From: Pisolithus tinctorius
Lineage: Eukaryota; Basidiomycota; Agaricomycetes; Boletales; Pisolithaceae
Direction of reading: 5' to 3'
DNA length: 64,000 nucleotides
NCBI GenBank assembly: GCA_024663395.1
Contig: JANFAH010000023.1
Span: forward strand, 558,001-622,000
Under the pieces are notes generated by a model. It was not told where the DNA came from. It saw nothing but the letters and a program-made list of their open reading frames with translations, and made no database searches. Below are positions 52,031 to 61,272 of this stretch, one piece after another. The first letter of the stretch is position 1; every line of letters begins with the position of its first letter. A program made the position numbers and the translations under genes.

Positions 52031-53084
52031 ATGTCAAAGCTCAAACAAAGTTCCGATGATACCACTACTTCAGTAGACACCCGCTTTGGCCGATGTTTTC
52101 TTCAATTTGAACGCTGAGGTCGATTACCATGCTATCAATCGGTCATTGGTCCAACTGTTTGGCGCGGACGCCGAAGGTTTGCAGACGGGAAGGCTAGCAA
52201 ATTTGATCTTATCGGCAGCGGACTCGGTCGTCGGGAGCCTCATCACCAAAACATATGGCGAAGACAGTGATCCGTGTGCTCTTCTTACCGTCTTGAGCTG
52301 CGATGCATACCGAGTACGATTACTTCCTGATTTTAATTTCTCAGCGTTCACTGATGGACAAAACGAGTACAGGATAATCCTGCTGTGAAGGCTCTCATAG
52401 GGTAGTACATGCTGTCAAAGATATCAGCGGATCCTACCTTCTTCAGCACGCCGTCTTTGCTGTTTGCACCGAAAACACAGGTTCAAAATCGGGCCCAAGC
52501 GCACCTAGGACTTGTTTTGTGGGAACACATGATCAGTATGCCAGTCCAGGTCGTTTCAGCCATGTATCATATGCTCGTCGACGAATTACAGGACGCAGTC
52601 GCAGACGTATAGCTTTTCACACTTTCATTTGATCAGGTCATATCAGTTCCAAATGCTGTGTAGGGTGATCCTTATAATTTCACCCACTCCCGAGCGTATC
52701 GCCTGACACCCGAAGAGGAGGCGATGGCTGCTGTGCAGAAAGATTCGACACTATATAAGTTAGTAGAAGGTTCTGAGTTAAGTAGGGGCAGAAATAGTCT
52801 ATGTGCATTCCATCCACAAGATGGGAGAATAACCTGTATTGCGCAACACGTGCCATTCCGCTACCGTTGTCACTGGAAATCCGAGTGGTCAAAGGAAATA
52901 CCGGCCATGAAAGGGATAACTATGACACCAAACTTCATGCAATTTTGCATAAACCGAATACCAAATACAACGGGACCCGTTCAGGGTACCGTGCTAGGTA
53001 CTCCTGTCTTGCAGCAAATTTTTGCAGACTTTCGCACGCTGGTGGGCCATTGCCCGTTGACTAGGGAACCCCTAGATGTAAGTT
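52031..53084 (+). pseudogene. BCP1: BCP1/BCCIP relic, copy 4
   Basis: ATG at 52,031, partner of copy 2 but with a deletion in the acidic N-terminus. FFNLNAEVDYHAINRSLVQL, DAEGLQTGRLANLILSAADS, SDPCALLTVLSC, ALYS-like FSTPSLLFAPKTQVQNRAQA, MPVQVVSAMYHMLVDELQDA and AYRLTPEEEAMAAVQKDST can be followed. A stop remains at the VEYM position (near 52,402). Several residues are closer to the family pattern than in copy 2, so the copies decayed independently. Confidence 0.7.
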
Positions 53085-53105
53085 GAAGTTACAGTGAAAC
53101 TATCG

Positions 53106-53995
53106 CGAGCAAGTCCGTTCGAGGGTTGGCCTCCATCGTGGTATCGCCAATTGGCGTCTTGTGTTGGACACTGTTCGGTCGGCAGGGATCCCGCGATTTG
53201 GCATCCTCCGGTCCCTCTCAGTCGATCTCATGTCTAGAGTTGGGCACTCAGAGAAGAAAATATGCAGGTGAAGACCAATACTACCTGTTCGCGTCGTCGC
53301 CGTAATCGCCAGGATCCTTCCAGCTCAAGACCGACAGACAATCATCCACCAGGTAATGCTAAATATTAGACATTAACTACGGCATCACGCAGATAGGGAA
53401 GTAACGCAGTCCAGCTTTTCACATAGGAATCGAACCGCTTACCACCTTCCACTCATTGGACCTATGACATGCGGCATGGTCGACAAACGCTCAGGAAGCG
53501 ATCGACTGCGCTTCGACGGTACATACGTAGGCAAAGTTATACTAACCATCTCGACAGAAAATCTAACACCTTTTCTAAGCTTTGTAAAAACATCGCGTCA
53601 TTGTGACGAAGACGCACTTGAAACTCCATGCTTCAATGCTGCCAATGAAAAGCCCAAGAACGACAGAACGGCCACATCACGGTATGTAACTTGGTATTAC
53701 TCGATTTTCCACTCTACTTGAATTTGATTCCGCGGTGGCTTTACGATATCTCGTATCATCCTGTCTGATCGATGTCGAGTTGAGTCAGTGGTTGCGGTTT
53801 CATTGCAGAGTACTCTACCAGATGCTACACCCGGACGCCAAGTTAATATGAGACTAAATTGAGGAATTTGAACCTTGTCCACTTATAGAGCAGCGCTTGA
53901 TGTCAAGGATAATGTGAGAGCATCAAGTCGTCCATGTGCTTCAAGGGACCACGACTTCGGCTATATGATCGTTTCACTTACTTGCCGCCATTACA
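53106..53995. other. Unique stretch, no gene recognised
   Basis: Not found elsewhere in the window. A plus frame at 53,464-53,721 (85 codons) and a minus frame at 53,882-53,697 (61 codons) have no features of note. CpG content is normal. Confidence 0.3.
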
Positions 53996-54001
53996 TAATT
54001 G
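53996..54001 (+). repeat. 6-bp target site duplication, left
   Basis: TAATTG, repeated at 61,267-61,272. Confidence 0.85.
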
Positions 54002-54314
54002 TATGGAAAGCCGGACAATCACGCTCGAATAAGGAAAGTCCAACGGCAAAATGCCCAACTCAAAATGGAAATGGCCGACGGCGGACCTCGATCACTCCAA
54101 GTACTTTTTTTTTTTTGCCATCGTCGTAATGAAAAATGAAAAAAACGCGTTTGTCGAAGTACTTTTTTTTTTTGGCCATCGTCATAATGAAAAATGAAAA
54201 AATGCGTTTGTCAAAGTACTTTTTTTTTTTGCCATCGTCATAATGAAAAAAGAAAAAACGCGTTTGTCAAAGTACTTTTTTTTTTGCCATCGTCGTATTG
54301 AAAAAAGAAAAAAA
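54002..54314 (+). repeat. Left terminal inverted repeat, 313 bp
   Basis: About 100 bp of unique sequence, then about four units near 57 bp starting at 54,101, 54,159, 54,216 and 54,272. Each has GTAC, a poly-T run, GCCATCGTCRTAATG, an A-rich run and GCGTTTGTC. One more unit than the right repeat; 313 minus 57 equals 256. Confidence 0.85.
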
Positions 54315-54357
54315 CATGAAATGTATGTAGTAGATTTCGTAGACGTAGGTAAAGAAT

Positions 54358-56680
54358 TCACAGACTCGCCTCGACGTCACTTGCTTCATCGTCTGAACCA
54401 ACATCGGAGAAGCGATCCACCCAGAGGAACGCACCCAGCACCTCCATGTCGTCTGCGCCATCAACCTCTTCCTCGTCACGCTCAAGTTTTTGCAGGGCAC
54501 GGACATGTTCTTCTTCTAAGGAGATGATACAGGTCAGCCTCGTTTCTTCACTCTAACCATTAGTATATTTTGACTTACGCAATCCCATCCCATTTCCAAG
54601 GCCGCCCATATATTGATCATTCTCGATAAGGTCTTGAAGTCCATCTATCAGAGGTACGTCATCATTCTGCTCTTCATTGTCAGACGTGGCCCCCTCGACG
54701 ATGGGAACGATATCTGGCTGCTGCCGTAGGAGGGAGAGGAGGTCAAGGTAGATCGCCCATATTGTGTTGCGCTGAACGGACGGGGAGCCCAGTCGTATAT
54801 AACACTCGTCGATGAAGGCGTTGAGTGCGTGCGGGACAAGATCGAATACTGGATGGTCAGCCTTAATGTAGAGTTGTCGGACGTCCTCGATTGTTTTCGG
54901 ATCGACCATCACCTGTCAGAAACCATAGCGTGTTAAATGTATACAATAAACAAATATATAGTACCTTGAAATCTAGCGCGCCATAGTCCTCCGCACAGGT
55001 GTGGATTAACTCGGGAATTCCATGAGGTAGGACCTGAAAAACACTCGTTACGTCGATCACGGAGGTCCAATCACTGCATACCTTGTTTTTGTCCTGGCGC
55101 TTGCGACTATTATTGACTCGGTCTTGATACTGGTCCAGCTCCCTCTGGAGCCAGGGAATAAACAACCAACGAAAGACCATCCTGTTCAGATATATGGCTC
55201 AGTGGTGAACCGTAAACTGAAAGGGATATCTTACAGCTGCAGCGTATTGTCGGGATCATACCAGCCTTCATCAAGGCCTTCATCGAGCAGAGTCTCAAAG
55301 CCAGGGGTAAATCGTCGTCGAAGCTGGGACCATGTGATTTCCGGCATGATGTTCTTCTTTGTGCGCATCCAGCGGTGTTGCACAAAGCCCCTCAATGCGG
55401 GATCATGCAGCTGTCGTAGCATGGTTTGAGCGTTAGCGATCCCAAAGTTTTCCGTTCCGGGATCACTTTGAGTCACCATCGGTATAACTAGAATCAAATT
55501 CTTGTCAGTATAATAGCACTACCGACTTGTGTTTCACTTACATCCAAACTCCGTAACAGTTTCCAAATAATAAGAAAGAATGAGCTGTGGGTTGCGGTTA
55601 GAGTGCCAAACCTTCATCCAAAGGATCCGCCCCGAGAACGGCTCAATCCCTGTGTGTAAACCGAGGCCAAATCGAAGCCATTTGTCGTGTTGATCCACTG
55701 CCCAGATGTCGTTGACACCTGCGGCCCAGAACCGGCGACGTTGGAGGCGCCTCGCCTTGTGGTGCCTAACTAAATGAGGCTCATACATAGCGAAGTACGA
55801 CTGCATGGTGCTCCTATTAAAGATGTTAATCAGCATGCCTTGCGCATGCTATATTTTGAGTACTCACCGAGAGACGGACATGTCATGCTCGAAGAAAATA
55901 AGGCTGATCATTTCCCGAGTCCCAGCATTGGGGTACATTTCTCGCAGTTTGATCATGGCATCCCGAATGGTTTCTGGTGTATGCGCCTGCTGCCGAGTGC
56001 GCACGAGACCGAGGCTCTTACGGATCGCAACAAATCTTGTCAGACTAGCCAACACGTGTATCAGCATTCGGCACAAGGAAATAAATGATCGCGCACCCAA
56101 TGCCATATTGGCTCAAATCTATGTGCTTCCTTAACTCTGCCAGAATTTGACGGTCGTTGAAGCGTGCCTTCCAGAGTCTTCGAACGTGCAGTTCAATGAG
56201 TTCCACCGGTGCTGTGTTAGCGACATTGATCAGATGCAATGATTTCAAAGAATGAGGCTGAGCTTACGGTTCGGTTTCCACTGATTGGGCATTGAGACAA
56301 TATTGAGGGAGCGAGCAGTCGGCCCGTCCCAACCTGCTTTATACAAATGAGTGGCGATTTGTGAAGCAGAGAGGTTGAGGCGGAGTGACAAGTCACCTAT
56401 CATAGCCGAGTGTACTATGTATATGTAAAATGCGCAACCGCTACCTGAGGCCCGAATCTCCGTGCAAGGCCTCATGGCTGCGTTCTTGATTATCTCTAAC
56501 CACTCAGATCCCTCCACGCTACAACACAGCTGCGTCAAGGCTGAAGCGAAGTGTCTTTCATTTCAATGCGGATGCACTTAAGAACTGACCATTCCCTTCC
56601 TGTCCCTCCCGAGTGTTTCCAACTCGGGTGCGTTCCTCGAGTGCGCTTCGCACCTGCCTGTCCTTCCAGCATGAAGGCAT
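54358..56680 (-). CDS. DDE integrase/transposase, 11 exons, 597 aa
   Basis: Likely catalyses insertion and excision of the element. Hand-spliced exons: 56,680-56,590, 56,540-56,445, 56,396-56,268, 56,211-56,097, 56,044-55,868, 55,813-55,542, 55,487-55,235, 55,181-55,082, 55,033-54,965, 54,912-54,579, 54,515-54,358. All have GT-AG borders and sum to 1,794 nt in one frame. Residues ~60-105 (DLSLRLNLSASQIATHLYKA) look helix-turn-helix; a second DNA-binding-like part follows (LWKARFNDRQILAELRKHI). The rve-like core has WAVDQHDKW (D243), VTQSDPGTEN (D302) and KKNIMPEITW (E343), spaced as a DDE triad. The tail is acidic. Similar integrase-core proteins occur in many Agaricomycetes (recollection). 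Transcribed away from the kinase. Confidence 0.82.
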
Positions 56681-56828
56681 CAATCGTCGGTGAGTCTCAA
56701 GTCTCGATTCCCCTGTCCTCACATGTCCGGCGGACATTTGTTGCATTGCAAATCTTGTTGCGTTGCATATACATGTGCAGTATAAATCATTGTGTGTTGC
56801 ATATACAGGTGCGGTAAAAATCACTGAC
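56681..56828. promoter_or_regulatory. Divergent promoter region between integrase and kinase
   Basis: 148 bp separate the two start codons. On the plus strand a TATA-like cagtataaatc lies at about 56,779, roughly 50 nt before the kinase ATG. It sits between two similar segments, ttgcatatacatgtgcagta and ttgcatatacaggtgcggta, that could bind a shared regulator (inference). Confidence 0.5.
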
Positions 56829-59662
56829 ATGTCCACTACCGATCCAAGCTCACACCTTGTCACACAGTTCAGTGAAGACGCATATGCACAAGTAGCAAGG
56901 CTTTGCCAGCGACCTTCCTGCGCAGTCGTCATCAACCCGGGTGAACCTTGCCACTACGTCGCACCCATTGACCAGACCAAGCCTGGCAGGTATGTATGTG
57001 GTAGTTGCTATGCACATTATCAGAGGAAGCCTTCGACAACTGTTAGCCGAGCCCAAGGTTAGTAAACTTTCCAGTTCTACGTCTGGCAAATATCCACTTA
57101 CCCTTTGACAGCGTCACTACCAAGTCCACAAGCCATTCGCCAATCTGTGGGTGCTGCTCAGTCACGCGGTGAGTTATGAATGACCATTCCCTGTCCGTTT
57201 TTTTACTTAGTTTTTATACAGCGTCAATTAATCCCCCTCCAGTCATGGCTATGGCGAACCTTCGCATGCCACCTCCGCCCGTTCCGATCCAACCGCCGAG
57301 CATCAGCCGCACGCCGCATCCACAACTTCCAATCCGAGGACCCAACATTCACGTGCCTTCAGCCATGGCACCAGCGGGTGCAGGCGCTTCATTGCCCGCC
57401 GGCTCTGTTGGCTATACTCCGCGGCACCTGCAGTATGCTGTTCAGCGTGAACACTGGCAACGTGTGGCCCACCGCCCCCCACCTGCGGAAACAATATCAT
57501 TGGAGGTTTCGGCGTTATATGAATCTGGGGTTAGGAAGAAAGGTCTTCGGGGCAATCCCATCGGAGTATGTGTATTATGTGGGCATTTCCCTGTCAACAT
57601 AGCTAACGTGTTATAACAGAACATATGCGAGGGCCTGAAGGACATTAATGCCTTGGCCTCAGCAGCCGAGCTCGTGGACATCGCCCTCCGCACAATCACC
57701 CCACGTATCCAAGCTTTCCGTCCTGAATTCCTGTGGCGGGACTCTGAGTTTGTAGTGCGCGACGCGATGTGGGTGGATCTCTTCCGACACTCACTGACGT
57801 CGAACGAGCCATACTTCTATGCCCAGTGCCTCCATCCGGCCACCCACAAAAATTCCCGAGCCATGGTCTTCAAGGCCAAGCAGTTCAGTCTCTACGTTGT
57901 CGTCCCTGCAAGCCAGTGGCAGGAGCTTGAGGCTTTCCAGGAGAAACTCGATGACACCGCAGCGGCAGGCACATCCATGTTTCCTGTGACGTCCGTCACT
58001 AATGCCGCCACCACTCCCAAGGGTTCCGAGGCTCCAGCTGTATCTGCCTCACGGACATCGACTACGACCCTCTTCGATCGCCCTATTTCTCATGATATCC
58101 GGCGTCTCTTCGACCAGACAGAGCCGTCCGCCTCTTTGATGATGGAGGCAGGTACAAGTATGCTCGCCAAACGCCGCCATCGCCAATCAAGCAGTATCTC
58201 AAGTACAACGGGTCTTTCTCCACCTCATAAGAAGTCTGTCACCTCGATTCTAGACCTTGACAACCTCGAATCAAGCAGCGATATCTCGAGCACAGCAGGT
58301 CTCACCGTACCTTGGCATAAGAAGCCTCTTGCCATGTCGCTTCCAGACCCTGAATCGAACAGTATCTCAAGCGCAACAGGTTTCACTCTGCCTCGTAATA
58401 AGCCCGCCACTGCGTCGCTTCCAGACCCTGACCGTCTCAAAACCGCACTCCAGTCCGGAGGCAGAGGGAAGTTCGAGCTACAGACCAGTACGTCACACTA
58501 CAATCTTCATTGACCTACGCTAATGCATCGTGACATCAGTACTTAAGCAGAAATTCGAACCGATCAACTTCTATCCGATACCCACTCGTGACATAACAGA
58601 GCTCGTCGGGGGAAACGACACCTTCGACATCAACAAGATCAATTCTCTCTCTGGTACGATCCTGGTAACTCACTCCAGTCACGACATCATCGGTGTAGGT
58701 GCATTTAAGACAGCACAACGCGCCCGAATCAACATTTTCGGGAGCGCGGCCAACTCCCTTGGGTCTACCCCAAACGAAGAAATCGTCCTCAAGCGTCCGT
58801 ATGATGTCGCGCAGGGCGGTCCACCCTATACGCGACTGACGCTGCATGAAGAGTCGATAAAGCTAGTTCGGGAGGCCAACATTTTGTACTGGTCGAAGGC
58901 GCTCCTCAACATGACCTACAACTACATCCATCATTGCGTCTCCGAATCTACAGATCCCCCTCCTTTCGAAATCCCCATCTTGCGTTTTGTAGTTGCTGGC
59001 CTAGTGGTCGCGTATTCACACCGTCCGGGTGGTCCCACAGGGCCTCATGCCCCAAAACCTGGCTCCGCCAGTGCTATGTACCTTGCCGAGGAGTTGATTA
59101 GATTTGACGATGGCCCAGACGGAATCAGTGGCGGCGGTTCGAAGAAGTTCACGAAGTTTATTCACAACAGCAACCCCAATCCCTTCCCCGAACCCGGCGA
59201 GTACGGGTATGAAACGGCAGAATTTCTCGCATTCACACAACACGTCCAATACAGCAACACGAATGGTCAAGTATACATTTCTGATTACCAAGGTAAGTCG
59301 CCTCGGATCCGATCATAGTACGTTGATATACTGACTTCTGTGACTTCTTATGCAGGCAGTACGACGCTGTTATCAGATCCCCAAATTCTCACCCACCCGT
59401 GCGCAATAACCACCTGACGCTCTGATTGTGTGTAATAGACTGATGAATCACCTTGCTTTCCAGCGACGTTAACCAAGGCCGGATCTTGTTTGGGGAAGGT
59501 AATCTGGAGGATGAAGTTGCGGCGTTTGAGCACCAGCACGTCTGTAACAAGTATTGCAAATGGCCGGGATTCCAGCTAGAGGTGTTTGGCAAGGGGAAGG
59601 CCCGAAGCTCAGGGACGGCGTCGTGCAAAGGAAAGACTCACAACACAGGAGGGGTGTTCTGA
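56829..59662 (+). CDS. Alpha-type protein kinase, 7 exons, 830 aa
   Basis: Atypical kinase of the MHCK/eEF2K class. Exons 56,829-57,057, 57,112-57,168, 57,222-57,565, 57,620-58,487, 58,540-59,292, 59,356-59,398 and 59,464-59,662 sum to 2,493 nt in one frame. The N-terminal Cys cluster (C-x4-C, GEPCHYV, TKPGRYVCGSCYAHY) and the middle block (NICEGLKD...FKAKQFSLYVVVP) are typical of fungal alpha-kinases. A Ser/Pro-rich linker precedes the kinase domain at about 535-800. It shows GVGAFK (556), EEIVLKRP (Lys584), PILRFVVAG, AMYLAEEL, YISDYQG (Asp748), LLSDPQILTHP (Asp758), LFGEGN, and the zinc site HQHVCNKYC. All key motifs are present, so it should be active. Its place inside the transposon makes it cargo or a regulator of the element; substrate unknown. 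Confidence 0.9.
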
Positions 59663-59785
59663 TTACCGTTGAAAGTAAAGGTTCTTTGGCTGTATGGCTT
59701 CCGTGAATCTTGTGTAGTACACTCATTGATGCTTGCTATAAATTGGTGCTTGCTCTTGCTGAAGCGATCCTCGCTCCAATTCGAC

Positions 59786-60959
59786 ATGGCCGTCCCCTCA
59801 ACTAACGTAGAGTACATGTGGGCAGTCATTGGTGGCCCAGTGACAGGCATCTATCGAGACTCGGACTGGTACTTTACATGTCACTCGATTATTGTGTGCG
59901 GTACTGACATGAAGCAATGTAGTCCTCGCATGGAGTGTGGGAGAGCATCGCCGCCATTACCAATCGCCATTCAATGTATTTCCGAACGGGAGGCCCAACT
60001 TGTATGCAGAACACTGCAGCCCATCGTGAACGCACTGCCAGCCAACCCGAGCCCTACACAATTACTTGCTGCATTGGGCGACTCTCGAAACGTGCGAAAC
60101 CTGCTCCACGACGACGAAGGCTTTCACGCTGTGGTAATAGGTGCACCACCTGGGGTTCACCGTACTAGGTGAAGCACTTTCACGCCTTTTCAACTTGCAA
60201 CACTTAATCCATCAACAAATTAGGGAAAGTGTAACACGCGCCGAGGGTACATTCAAGTATCTCAAAAAGCGTCACACTGCCTCATTCTGGGAGGCTTTAG
60301 CATTCGTTGTGGTGAAAGGCATTGAAGGACTCATGCCTCCCTTGCTAACATCTACTGAAGTGCTTAACGATGGTGATTTTTGACTTCACATTTTGCAAAC
60401 TGACGGGTTTAACTGTGGTATAGTAGATGCAATCACCAACAGTCTCCGCACTCTCCAAGTTGACGCAGACCTAGTAAGCTCCTCAAACACCCCAAGATCC
60501 CCTCCCTCAAGACGTAGGATTCCTTCCGTGTCCACTCCCACGTCCCCCACCTACTCGATGATATCGTCGCCATCCACATCTCATACCCGCACACGTGTGC
60601 ACTCTACCCATCATCTGTTCTCCCCCCCTCCCTCTTCAGGTCCCCCTGCCGGCCCGATCATCTACACACACATCCGTAGCCTTCGTGGTCTTCTTTCCAG
60701 CCAATATGTTCCTCATGCGAACTCGGATTTAAGCTCCCAGGTCGAGGCCCGAGCTCGACCATTGGGCGGAATAGTAGCTCAATATCTTGCTTCCCACGGC
60801 TATGGCTTATCTGACGTTGACATTATCCTCGATTGCTACAGGCAATCTCAATCCGTGGAACCACCTGTGGGCGACCAGTTTGTGATGCATCTTGCACGGG
60901 AGGGCTTGCCTGTGGCTGAGGGGAACTTCTTGTTGGCTATGATAAGGAGACGGCGTTGA
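59786..60959 (+). CDS. Third gene of the element, unknown, about 337 aa
   Basis: ATG at 59,786. Exons 59,786-59,868, 59,923-60,168, 60,224-60,372 and 60,424-60,959 have GT-AG borders and sum to 1,014 nt in one frame; the first intron (54 bp) is optional, since reading through stays open. Two similar modules are seen, MWAVIGGPVTGIYRDS and FHAVVIGAPPGVHRTR followed by a variable stretch, loosely like the N-terminal hybrid-binding domain of RNase H1 (weak resemblance). A Ser/Thr/Pro-rich linker follows, then a C-terminal helical-looking part (YTHIRSLRGLLSSQY, GIVAQYLASHGYGLSDVDII) ending in MIRRRR. Tandem with the kinase, 123 bp downstream. Role unknown. Confidence 0.6.
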
Positions 60960-61010
60960 CACTGCAATTATAGATACGTAGGAAATGCGGTCACAAGTTT
61001 GACAAAGGTG

Positions 61011-61266
61011 TTTTTCTTTTTTCAATACGACGATGGCAAAAAAAAAAAAGTACTTTGACAAACGCGTTTTTTCATTTTTCATTATGACGATGGCCAAAAA
61101 AAAAAAGTACTTCGACAAACGCGTTTTTTCATTTTTCATTACGACGATGGCAAAAAAAAAAAAGTACTTGGAGTGATCGAGGTCCGCCGTCGGCCATTTC
61201 CATTTTGAGTTGGGCATTTTGCCGTTGGACTTTCCTTATTCGAGCGTGATTGTCCGGCTTTCCATA
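61011..61266 (-). repeat. Right terminal inverted repeat, 256 bp
   Basis: Reverse complement of the left repeat with three of the ~57-bp units (GTAC boundaries at about 61,050, 61,109 and 61,167). Outside the unit-number difference only a few bases differ. Confidence 0.85.
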
Positions 61267-61272
61267 TAATTG
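61267..61272 (+). repeat. 6-bp target site duplication, right
   Basis: TAATTG, as at 53,996-54,001. Confidence 0.85.

What the first reader, a model, noticed from the sequence alone, without database searches (positions are those of the whole stretch)
54002..61266. Complete integrase transposon that carries an alpha-kinase gene
A 7,265-bp unit has matching terminal repeats (TATGGAAAGCCGGACAATC), a perfect 6-bp duplication TAATTG and three genes that all splice in frame by hand (597, 830 and about 337 aa). DDE-integrase elements known to me with 6-bp duplications are far larger (Mavericks), and Ginger elements usually have 4-bp duplications and no kinase. A mobile element with its own alpha-kinase could modify host or transposase proteins, and could help explain why alpha-kinases are so numerous in mushroom genomes.
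Basis: partly seen in the sequence, partly recalled or inferred. Interest (0 to 1): 0.92.

Follow-up and report, generated by a model that had tools for sequence, protein, structure and literature searches.

The report
Mushroom transposon carrying an alpha-kinase gene
The stretch is a complete, recently inserted DNA transposon of a mushroom that carries an atypical protein kinase gene among its own genes, and its relatives keep that kinase too, so the kinase looks like a working part of the mobile element rather than a host gene caught by accident.

Summary
Window 54,002-61,266 is a complete 7,265-bp DNA transposon: outer TIRs identical over 140 bases, TAATTG/TAATTG duplication, and three spliced genes (DD40E integrase, 830-aa alpha-kinase, third protein of about 355 aa). 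A homologous contig of the same genome (probably Pisolithus tinctorius) holds the empty site with one TAATTG. Of 13 insertions with both ends found, 12 have perfect 6-bp duplications. All 7 other long copies, and 7 of 7 diverged relatives examined, keep integrase, kinase and third gene together.

The interpretation needs correcting: the element fits a known superfamily, IS3EU, and IS3EU elements with an alpha-kinase opposite the transposase are in print for rust fungi (PMC12730594). What I did not find in print is this mushroom branch without a TET gene, its third protein with a possible RNase H1 hybrid-binding-like domain, evidence that the kinase is kept by selection between families, and element copies changed C>T at CpG 22-185 times more often than at their other sites. 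What the kinase phosphorylates is unknown; I favour regulation of the element's own transposition, with modest odds.

The parts
53996..54001 (.). target site duplication TAATTG (left)
   Evidence: single copy in the empty site on C10
54002..54271 (+). left terminal inverted repeat, about 270 bp, TATGG end
   Evidence: outer 140 bases identical to the right arm
54096..54330 (+). left subterminal tandem repeats (4 copies of about 57 bp, the last diverged)
54358..56737 (-). integrase/transposase gene, 9 exons in the model used, 648 aa from ATG 56737 (577-619 aa from later ATGs); presumed catalytic D at 55695, D at 55464, E at 55341
   Evidence: (PF24764 E=1.2e-16)
56738..56828 (.). 91-bp divergent region between integrase and kinase; no room for a TET/JBP gene
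56829..59662 (+). alpha-kinase gene, 7 exons, 830 aa; Pfam kinase-domain match 58764-59557
   Evidence: (PF02816 E=1.9e-11)
59786..60959 (+). third gene, about 355 aa (splicing of the middle uncertain); RNase H1 hybrid-binding-like region at 60122-60308
61011..61181 (-). right subterminal tandem repeats (3 copies of about 57 bp)
60998..61266 (-). right terminal inverted repeat, about 270 bp, CCATA end
61267..61272 (.). target site duplication TAATTG (right)

Best explanation
This is a complete, probably autonomous cut-and-paste DNA transposon of the IS3EU superfamily, very probably in Pisolithus tinctorius. Shown: exact TIRs, 6-bp TSD, empty site, many copies, and open frames of all three genes in this copy alone among the 8 long copies examined. 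Inferred: the DD40E integrase binds the TIRs and their subterminal repeats, excises the element and inserts it with 6-bp staggered cuts. The alpha-kinase and third protein are element proteins kept by selection. I think it most likely that the kinase phosphorylates proteins of the element's own transposition complex (integrase and/or third protein) to time or limit transposition, and that the third protein binds nucleic acid of the element through a hybrid-binding-like domain. The confidence below is for the identity and cargo; for the kinase's target it is about 0.45.
Against: No Repbase IS3EU proteins could be compared, so placement rests on ends, TSD, lack of HHCC and gene layout. Within the young family the kinase signal of selection is weak once CpG sites are dropped (ratios 0.35-1.64, few counts). 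Among closer relatives kinase ratios are 0.52-0.55 with all sites and 0.60-0.67 without CpG (L039-L040, L042-L043). L044 has N for the D of DxQG, and L039, L040 and L043 have 1, 2 and 1 stops in aligned kinase codons. The integrase is broken in the relatives too: 2-6 stops in 6 of 6, with the D or E changed or misaligned in L041, L042, L043. Integrase and kinase distances agree only loosely (Mantel r 0.27, 36 of 5000 permutations), so swapping between families is possible. The active IS3EU element Styx is described without an alpha-kinase in the passages I read, so not every IS3EU needs one.
Confidence: 0.9

Rival explanations
1. The kinase (with the third protein) is an anti-silencing factor: it phosphorylates host chromatin, methylation or RNA-silencing proteins so that the element stays expressed, much as TET/JBP genes are thought to do in rust IS3EU elements. 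This rivals only the target step, not the identity of the element.
For: Long copies are changed C>T at 10.5-40.5% of CpG sites, so they look like silenced targets. In rusts the TET gene sits between transposase and kinase. A hybrid-binding-like domain in the third protein could fit interference with RNA-based silencing.
Against: 7 of 7 other long copies are decayed, so any protection is poor. No substrate or expression data. The kinase accompanies the integrase in rusts (in print) and in Boletales (here), with and without TET, which fits a core transposition role at least as well.
Confidence: 0.3
2. The kinase is a passenger: a host gene caught once and carried along, of no use to the element.
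For: Short derivatives without it have moved: 7 insertions with TIRs and perfect TSDs, two of them probably one event. Selection within the young family is not clear.
Against: Present in 7 of 7 long copies and 7 of 7 relatives with active-site motifs mostly kept; no stop in 598, 674 and 614 aligned kinase codons of L041, L042 and L044; nonsynonymous change far below saturated synonymous change between L041 and L044.
Confidence: 0.08
3. The element is a Ginger, Maverick/Polinton or KDZ transposon, or an unclassified new superfamily.
For: Integrase core domain and 6-bp TSD as in Mavericks; no tree could be made.
Against: 7.3 kb, three genes, none with a polymerase, ATPase or capsid match; 6-bp not 4- or 8-bp TSDs; TATGG..CCATA ends fit TAYGG..CCRTA of fungal IS3EU; HHCC pattern absent before the integrase core and in 120 of 120 listed homologues.
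Confidence: 0.06

Closest known systems
TET+ IS3EU transposons of rust fungi (Kojima 2025, PMC12730594; abstract, passages and section 4.2 seen)
   Same: 6-bp TSD, TIRs over 30 bp, ends TAYGG..CCRTA, transposase and alpha-kinase in opposite orientation
   Different: Here no TET/JBP gene lies between transposase and kinase (91 bp only); a third gene with a possible hybrid-binding-like domain is present; the host is a mushroom of the Boletales
IS3EU/GingerRoot superfamily in general (PMC10045372; abstract and passages seen)
   Same: TA..TA ends, usually 6-bp TSD, DDE transposase without HHCC
Styx of Zymoseptoria, an active IS3EU-related element (PMC10853768; passages seen)
   Same: About 7.9 kb, TIRs, 6-bp TSD, four coding sequences including a DDD/E transposase
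   Different: No alpha-kinase mentioned in the passages seen; ascomycete host; new insertions observed in a pedigree
IS3EU repeats annotated in other mushrooms (PMC12411881 Phlebopus, Boletales; PMC8955403 Ganoderma; passages seen)
   Same: IS3EU listed among the transposons of Agaricomycetes
   Different: Only counted there; no gene content or kinase described in the passages seen
Helitron capE of Pleurotus ostreatus (PMC4289320; passages seen)
   Same: A mobile element of a mushroom carrying a PF01693 domain gene
   Different: Different element class; alpha-kinase not mentioned in the text
Other rva_4 integrase loci of the same genome (L045-L047)
   Same: Pfam rva_4 match
   Different: No kinase match in 3 of 3 loci, one weak third-gene match at E=0.004; but the same query panel did not find the integrase there either, so this absence is weak

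Membership tests
IS3EU/GingerRoot | TSD usually 6 bp | tested here: met
   12 of 13 insertions with both ends perfect, one 5 of 6; 4 of 4 relatives in which TIRs were found; empty site
IS3EU/GingerRoot | TA..TA termini; in fungal TET+ members TAYGG..CCRTA, TIR over 30 bp | tested here: met
   TATGG..CCATA, arms about 270 bp
IS3EU/GingerRoot | DDE transposase core without an upstream HHCC motif | tested here: met
   rva_4 E=1.2e-16, D278 D337 E378, HHCC pattern absent from residues 1-277 and found in 0 of 120 listed homologues
IS3EU/GingerRoot | groups with Repbase IS3EU transposases in a tree | not testable with these tools
   Repbase proteins not held
alpha-kinase-bearing IS3EU of rusts | alpha-kinase gene opposite to the transposase inside the TIRs | tested here: met
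   window; 5 of 7 long copies with both ends (2 lack one end); 4 of 7 relatives with TIRs found, the other 3 with adjacent genes only
TET+ IS3EU | TET/JBP gene between transposase and alpha-kinase | tested here: not met
   91-bp gap only; the three proteins match no TET/JBP family in Pfam at E<=1
alpha-kinase (PF02816) | alpha-kinase fold and active-site motifs | tested here: met
RNase H1 N-terminal (hybrid-binding) domain, PF01693 | sequence match above the curated cut-off | tested here: inconclusive
   5 of 15 homologues match at E<=10, best 20.5 bits against cut-off 21, E=5.9e-4; window protein no match; profile vs 1qhk E=0.84
RNase H1 N-terminal (hybrid-binding) domain, PF01693 | fold of the hybrid-binding domain | tested here: inconclusive
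Ginger1/Ginger2 | 4-bp TSD (recalled) | tested here: not met
   6-bp TSDs
Maverick/Polinton | 15-20 kb with PolB, ATPase, capsid and protease genes (recalled) | tested here: not met
   7,265 bp, three genes without such matches
KDZ (Zisupton) | 8-bp TSD (PMC12730594, passage) | tested here: not met
   6-bp TSDs

The most novel reading that the evidence does not exclude
Alpha-kinase is an ancient core component of basidiomycete IS3EU transposons, shared by rusts and mushrooms, and much of the alpha-kinase expansion reported in such genomes is transposon cargo. In Boletales the module has a third standing member, a hybrid-binding-like nucleic-acid-binding protein. A mobile element would thus carry its own phosphorylation switch.
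Probability: 0.5. Interest if true: 0.78.

Novelty: new variant of a known kind. Interest (0 to 1): 0.6.

Why it matters
Protein kinases are rare as standing cargo of eukaryotic DNA transposons (recalled). If the kinase serves the element, this is a testable case of a transposon regulating itself or its host by phosphorylation. It also offers a countable explanation for alpha-kinase family expansion, which is stated for rusts (PMC4469406, passage; a table row in PMC5295586). An open copy with an empty homologous site in the same assembly points to recent movement.

Full report
CHECK. The pattern TATGGAAAGCCGGACAATC occurs twice in 64 kb, exactly at 54002 (+) and 61266 (-), none expected by chance. 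Both outer flanks read TAATTG. The arms are identical over the outer 140 bases and about 270 bp long at 97%, with subterminal repeats of about 57 bp, four left and three right. A splice-site programme gives an integrase of 577-648 aa on the minus strand, an 830-aa kinase and a third protein of 355-357 aa on the plus strand. The kinase model is the best-scoring one. The integrase model used is the second-best and the third-gene model the third-best, chosen because they keep stretches conserved in relatives. Pfam names the first two: rva_4 integrase core and Alpha_kinase.

HOST. The genome is 92.5 Mb in 221 contigs.

COPIES. The element gives 104 DNA matches in its genome, a lower bound since 40 of 64 candidates were scored. 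I fetched 30 stretches and looked for ends in 27 loci, the window's included. Thirteen insertions have both ends; four of these are split by other DNA and their ends were paired by me over 10-35 kb. Twelve have a perfect 6-bp duplication (TAATTG, CTAATG, ATCATC, TTTTTC, GTCTTC, CTATGG, GAGAAG, TATTCG on two contigs, TCTCCG, ACGGAC, AAGCAC) and one matches 5 of 6 (C17). Nine further ends had no partner in the stretches searched. Seven of the 13 are short, 1,845-2,560 bp; their middle does not match the window element, and they keep only end fragments of the integrase and third genes. Seven further long copies all cover parts of integrase, kinase and third gene; two of them (C1 783 kb and 826 kb) are near-identical and probably one duplicated copy, C35 covers 130 of 649 integrase codons and C4 146 of 356 third-gene codons. 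Seven of 7 have stops in both integrase and kinase; only the window copy has all three frames open.

EMPTY SITE. The 1,400-bp left and right flanks match contig C10 side by side at 98% and 99%. In 2.4 kb fetched there the two flanks meet at a single TAATTG, 98.8% and 99.3% identical over about 1 kb each. This is the pre-insertion site on a homologous contig, probably the other haplotype. The insertion is therefore real and young enough to be absent from one of the two.

RELATIVES IN THE SAME GENOME. Seven loci with integrase relatives (36-78% amino-acid identity by stretch; L036, L039-L044) were examined; 7 of 7 carry the kinase and a third-gene relative next to the integrase. Four show TIRs of the TATGGAAAGCC type with perfect 6-bp duplications (7,376-8,096 bp); in the other three no such pair was found in the stretch held. 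Two layouts occur: the window's order (window, L041-L044) and one with the third gene beyond the integrase instead of beyond the kinase (L036, L039, L040). From the hit lists, which I copied by hand, third-gene relatives lie within 10 kb of 12 of 20 diverged integrase clusters and within 15 kb of 15 of 20. Three loci of other rva_4 families (L045-L047) had no kinase match and one weak third-gene match, but the same panel missed the integrase there, so this is no firm negative.

OTHER FUNGI. The kinase domain finds 65 homologues: 61 carry names of Boletales genera (assignment recalled), 1 is unnamed, 2 are Calocera and 1 Trametes. The integrase finds 365, of which the 120 listed carry PF24764. 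Five kinase-integrase pairs have consecutive locus tags and one pair is two apart, on contigs of equal length, in Chiua virens (two), Melanogaster broomeanus, Suillus fuscotomentosus, S. lakei and Boletus reticuloceps; I read these off the two lists by eye. The third gene finds 20 homologues, 17 named, from Pisolithus, Hydnomerulius, Scleroderma and Paxillus.

CPG CHANGE. Relative to the window copy, other long copies differ mostly by transitions. C>T at CpG affects 10.5-40.5% of CpG sites against 0.09-1.79% of other sites, a 22- to 185-fold excess in 7 of 7 copies, without a TCG preference. Direction is taken from the window copy, not from an outgroup. In the host flanks against C10, 5 of 19 differences fall in CpG context (5 of 226 such sites against 14 of 1,771 others, under 3-fold). 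This looks like methylation-linked mutation aimed at the element. [quoted passage not shown]

COMPARISON. PMC12730594 describes TET+ IS3EU elements of rusts with 6-bp TSDs, TAYGG..CCRTA ends and an alpha-kinase opposite the transposase, with a TET gene between them (passages). PMC10045372 gives TA..TA ends, usually 6-bp TSDs and no HHCC for IS3EU (passages). The window element meets each of these that I could test except TET, for which the 91-bp gap leaves no room. It works like, and very probably is, an IS3EU transposon. The puzzle about 6-bp duplications is thereby solved, and the kinase cargo is a known association extended to mushrooms.

MECHANISM. Shown: structure, past mobility, cargo constancy in the copies examined, conserved kinase motifs. 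Inferred: cut-and-paste by the integrase; kinase and third protein acting for the element. Which protein the kinase modifies is not shown. I favour the element's own complex over anti-silencing because kinase and integrase are paired in rusts (in print) and in Boletales (here), with and without TET; the margin is small.

Noticed in passing
long copies of the element in G000 (C1, C4, C6, C17, C35) against window 54002-61266: C>T at CpG is 22-185 times more frequent than change at other sites in 7 of 7 copies, under 3-fold in the host flanks: CpG-directed decay of transposon copies in an Agaricomycete.
   Followed up: partly
L022-L028 (C2, C25, C77, C32): Seven short derivatives, 1,845-2,560 bp, share the ends and an internal segment of about 1.4 kb that is not in the window element and holds diverged internal repeats of about 290 bp; origin unexplained.
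   Followed up: partly
C25:205148-207707 and C77:218201-220757; C23 and C10 around the window: Near-identical contig stretches suggest that the assembly holds both haplotypes in places.
   Followed up: no
window 52602-54001: The left flank has copies at 83-90% nearby on C23 and on C10 besides the homologous site, a local family of duplicated host DNA.
   Followed up: no
rva_4 hits; L045-L047: 134 rva_4 integrase matches in this genome (150 of 464 candidates scored); at the three loci read, neighbouring frames are unlike the window's genes.
   Followed up: partly
P0010 (Pisolithus tinctorius Marx 270): A 262-aa annotated protein has an alpha-kinase domain and third-gene sequence, probably a gene-model fusion that shows the two genes side by side in another assembly.
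   Followed up: no
L036, L039, L040 against L041-L044: The third gene sits on either side of the integrase-kinase pair in different families.
   Followed up: partly
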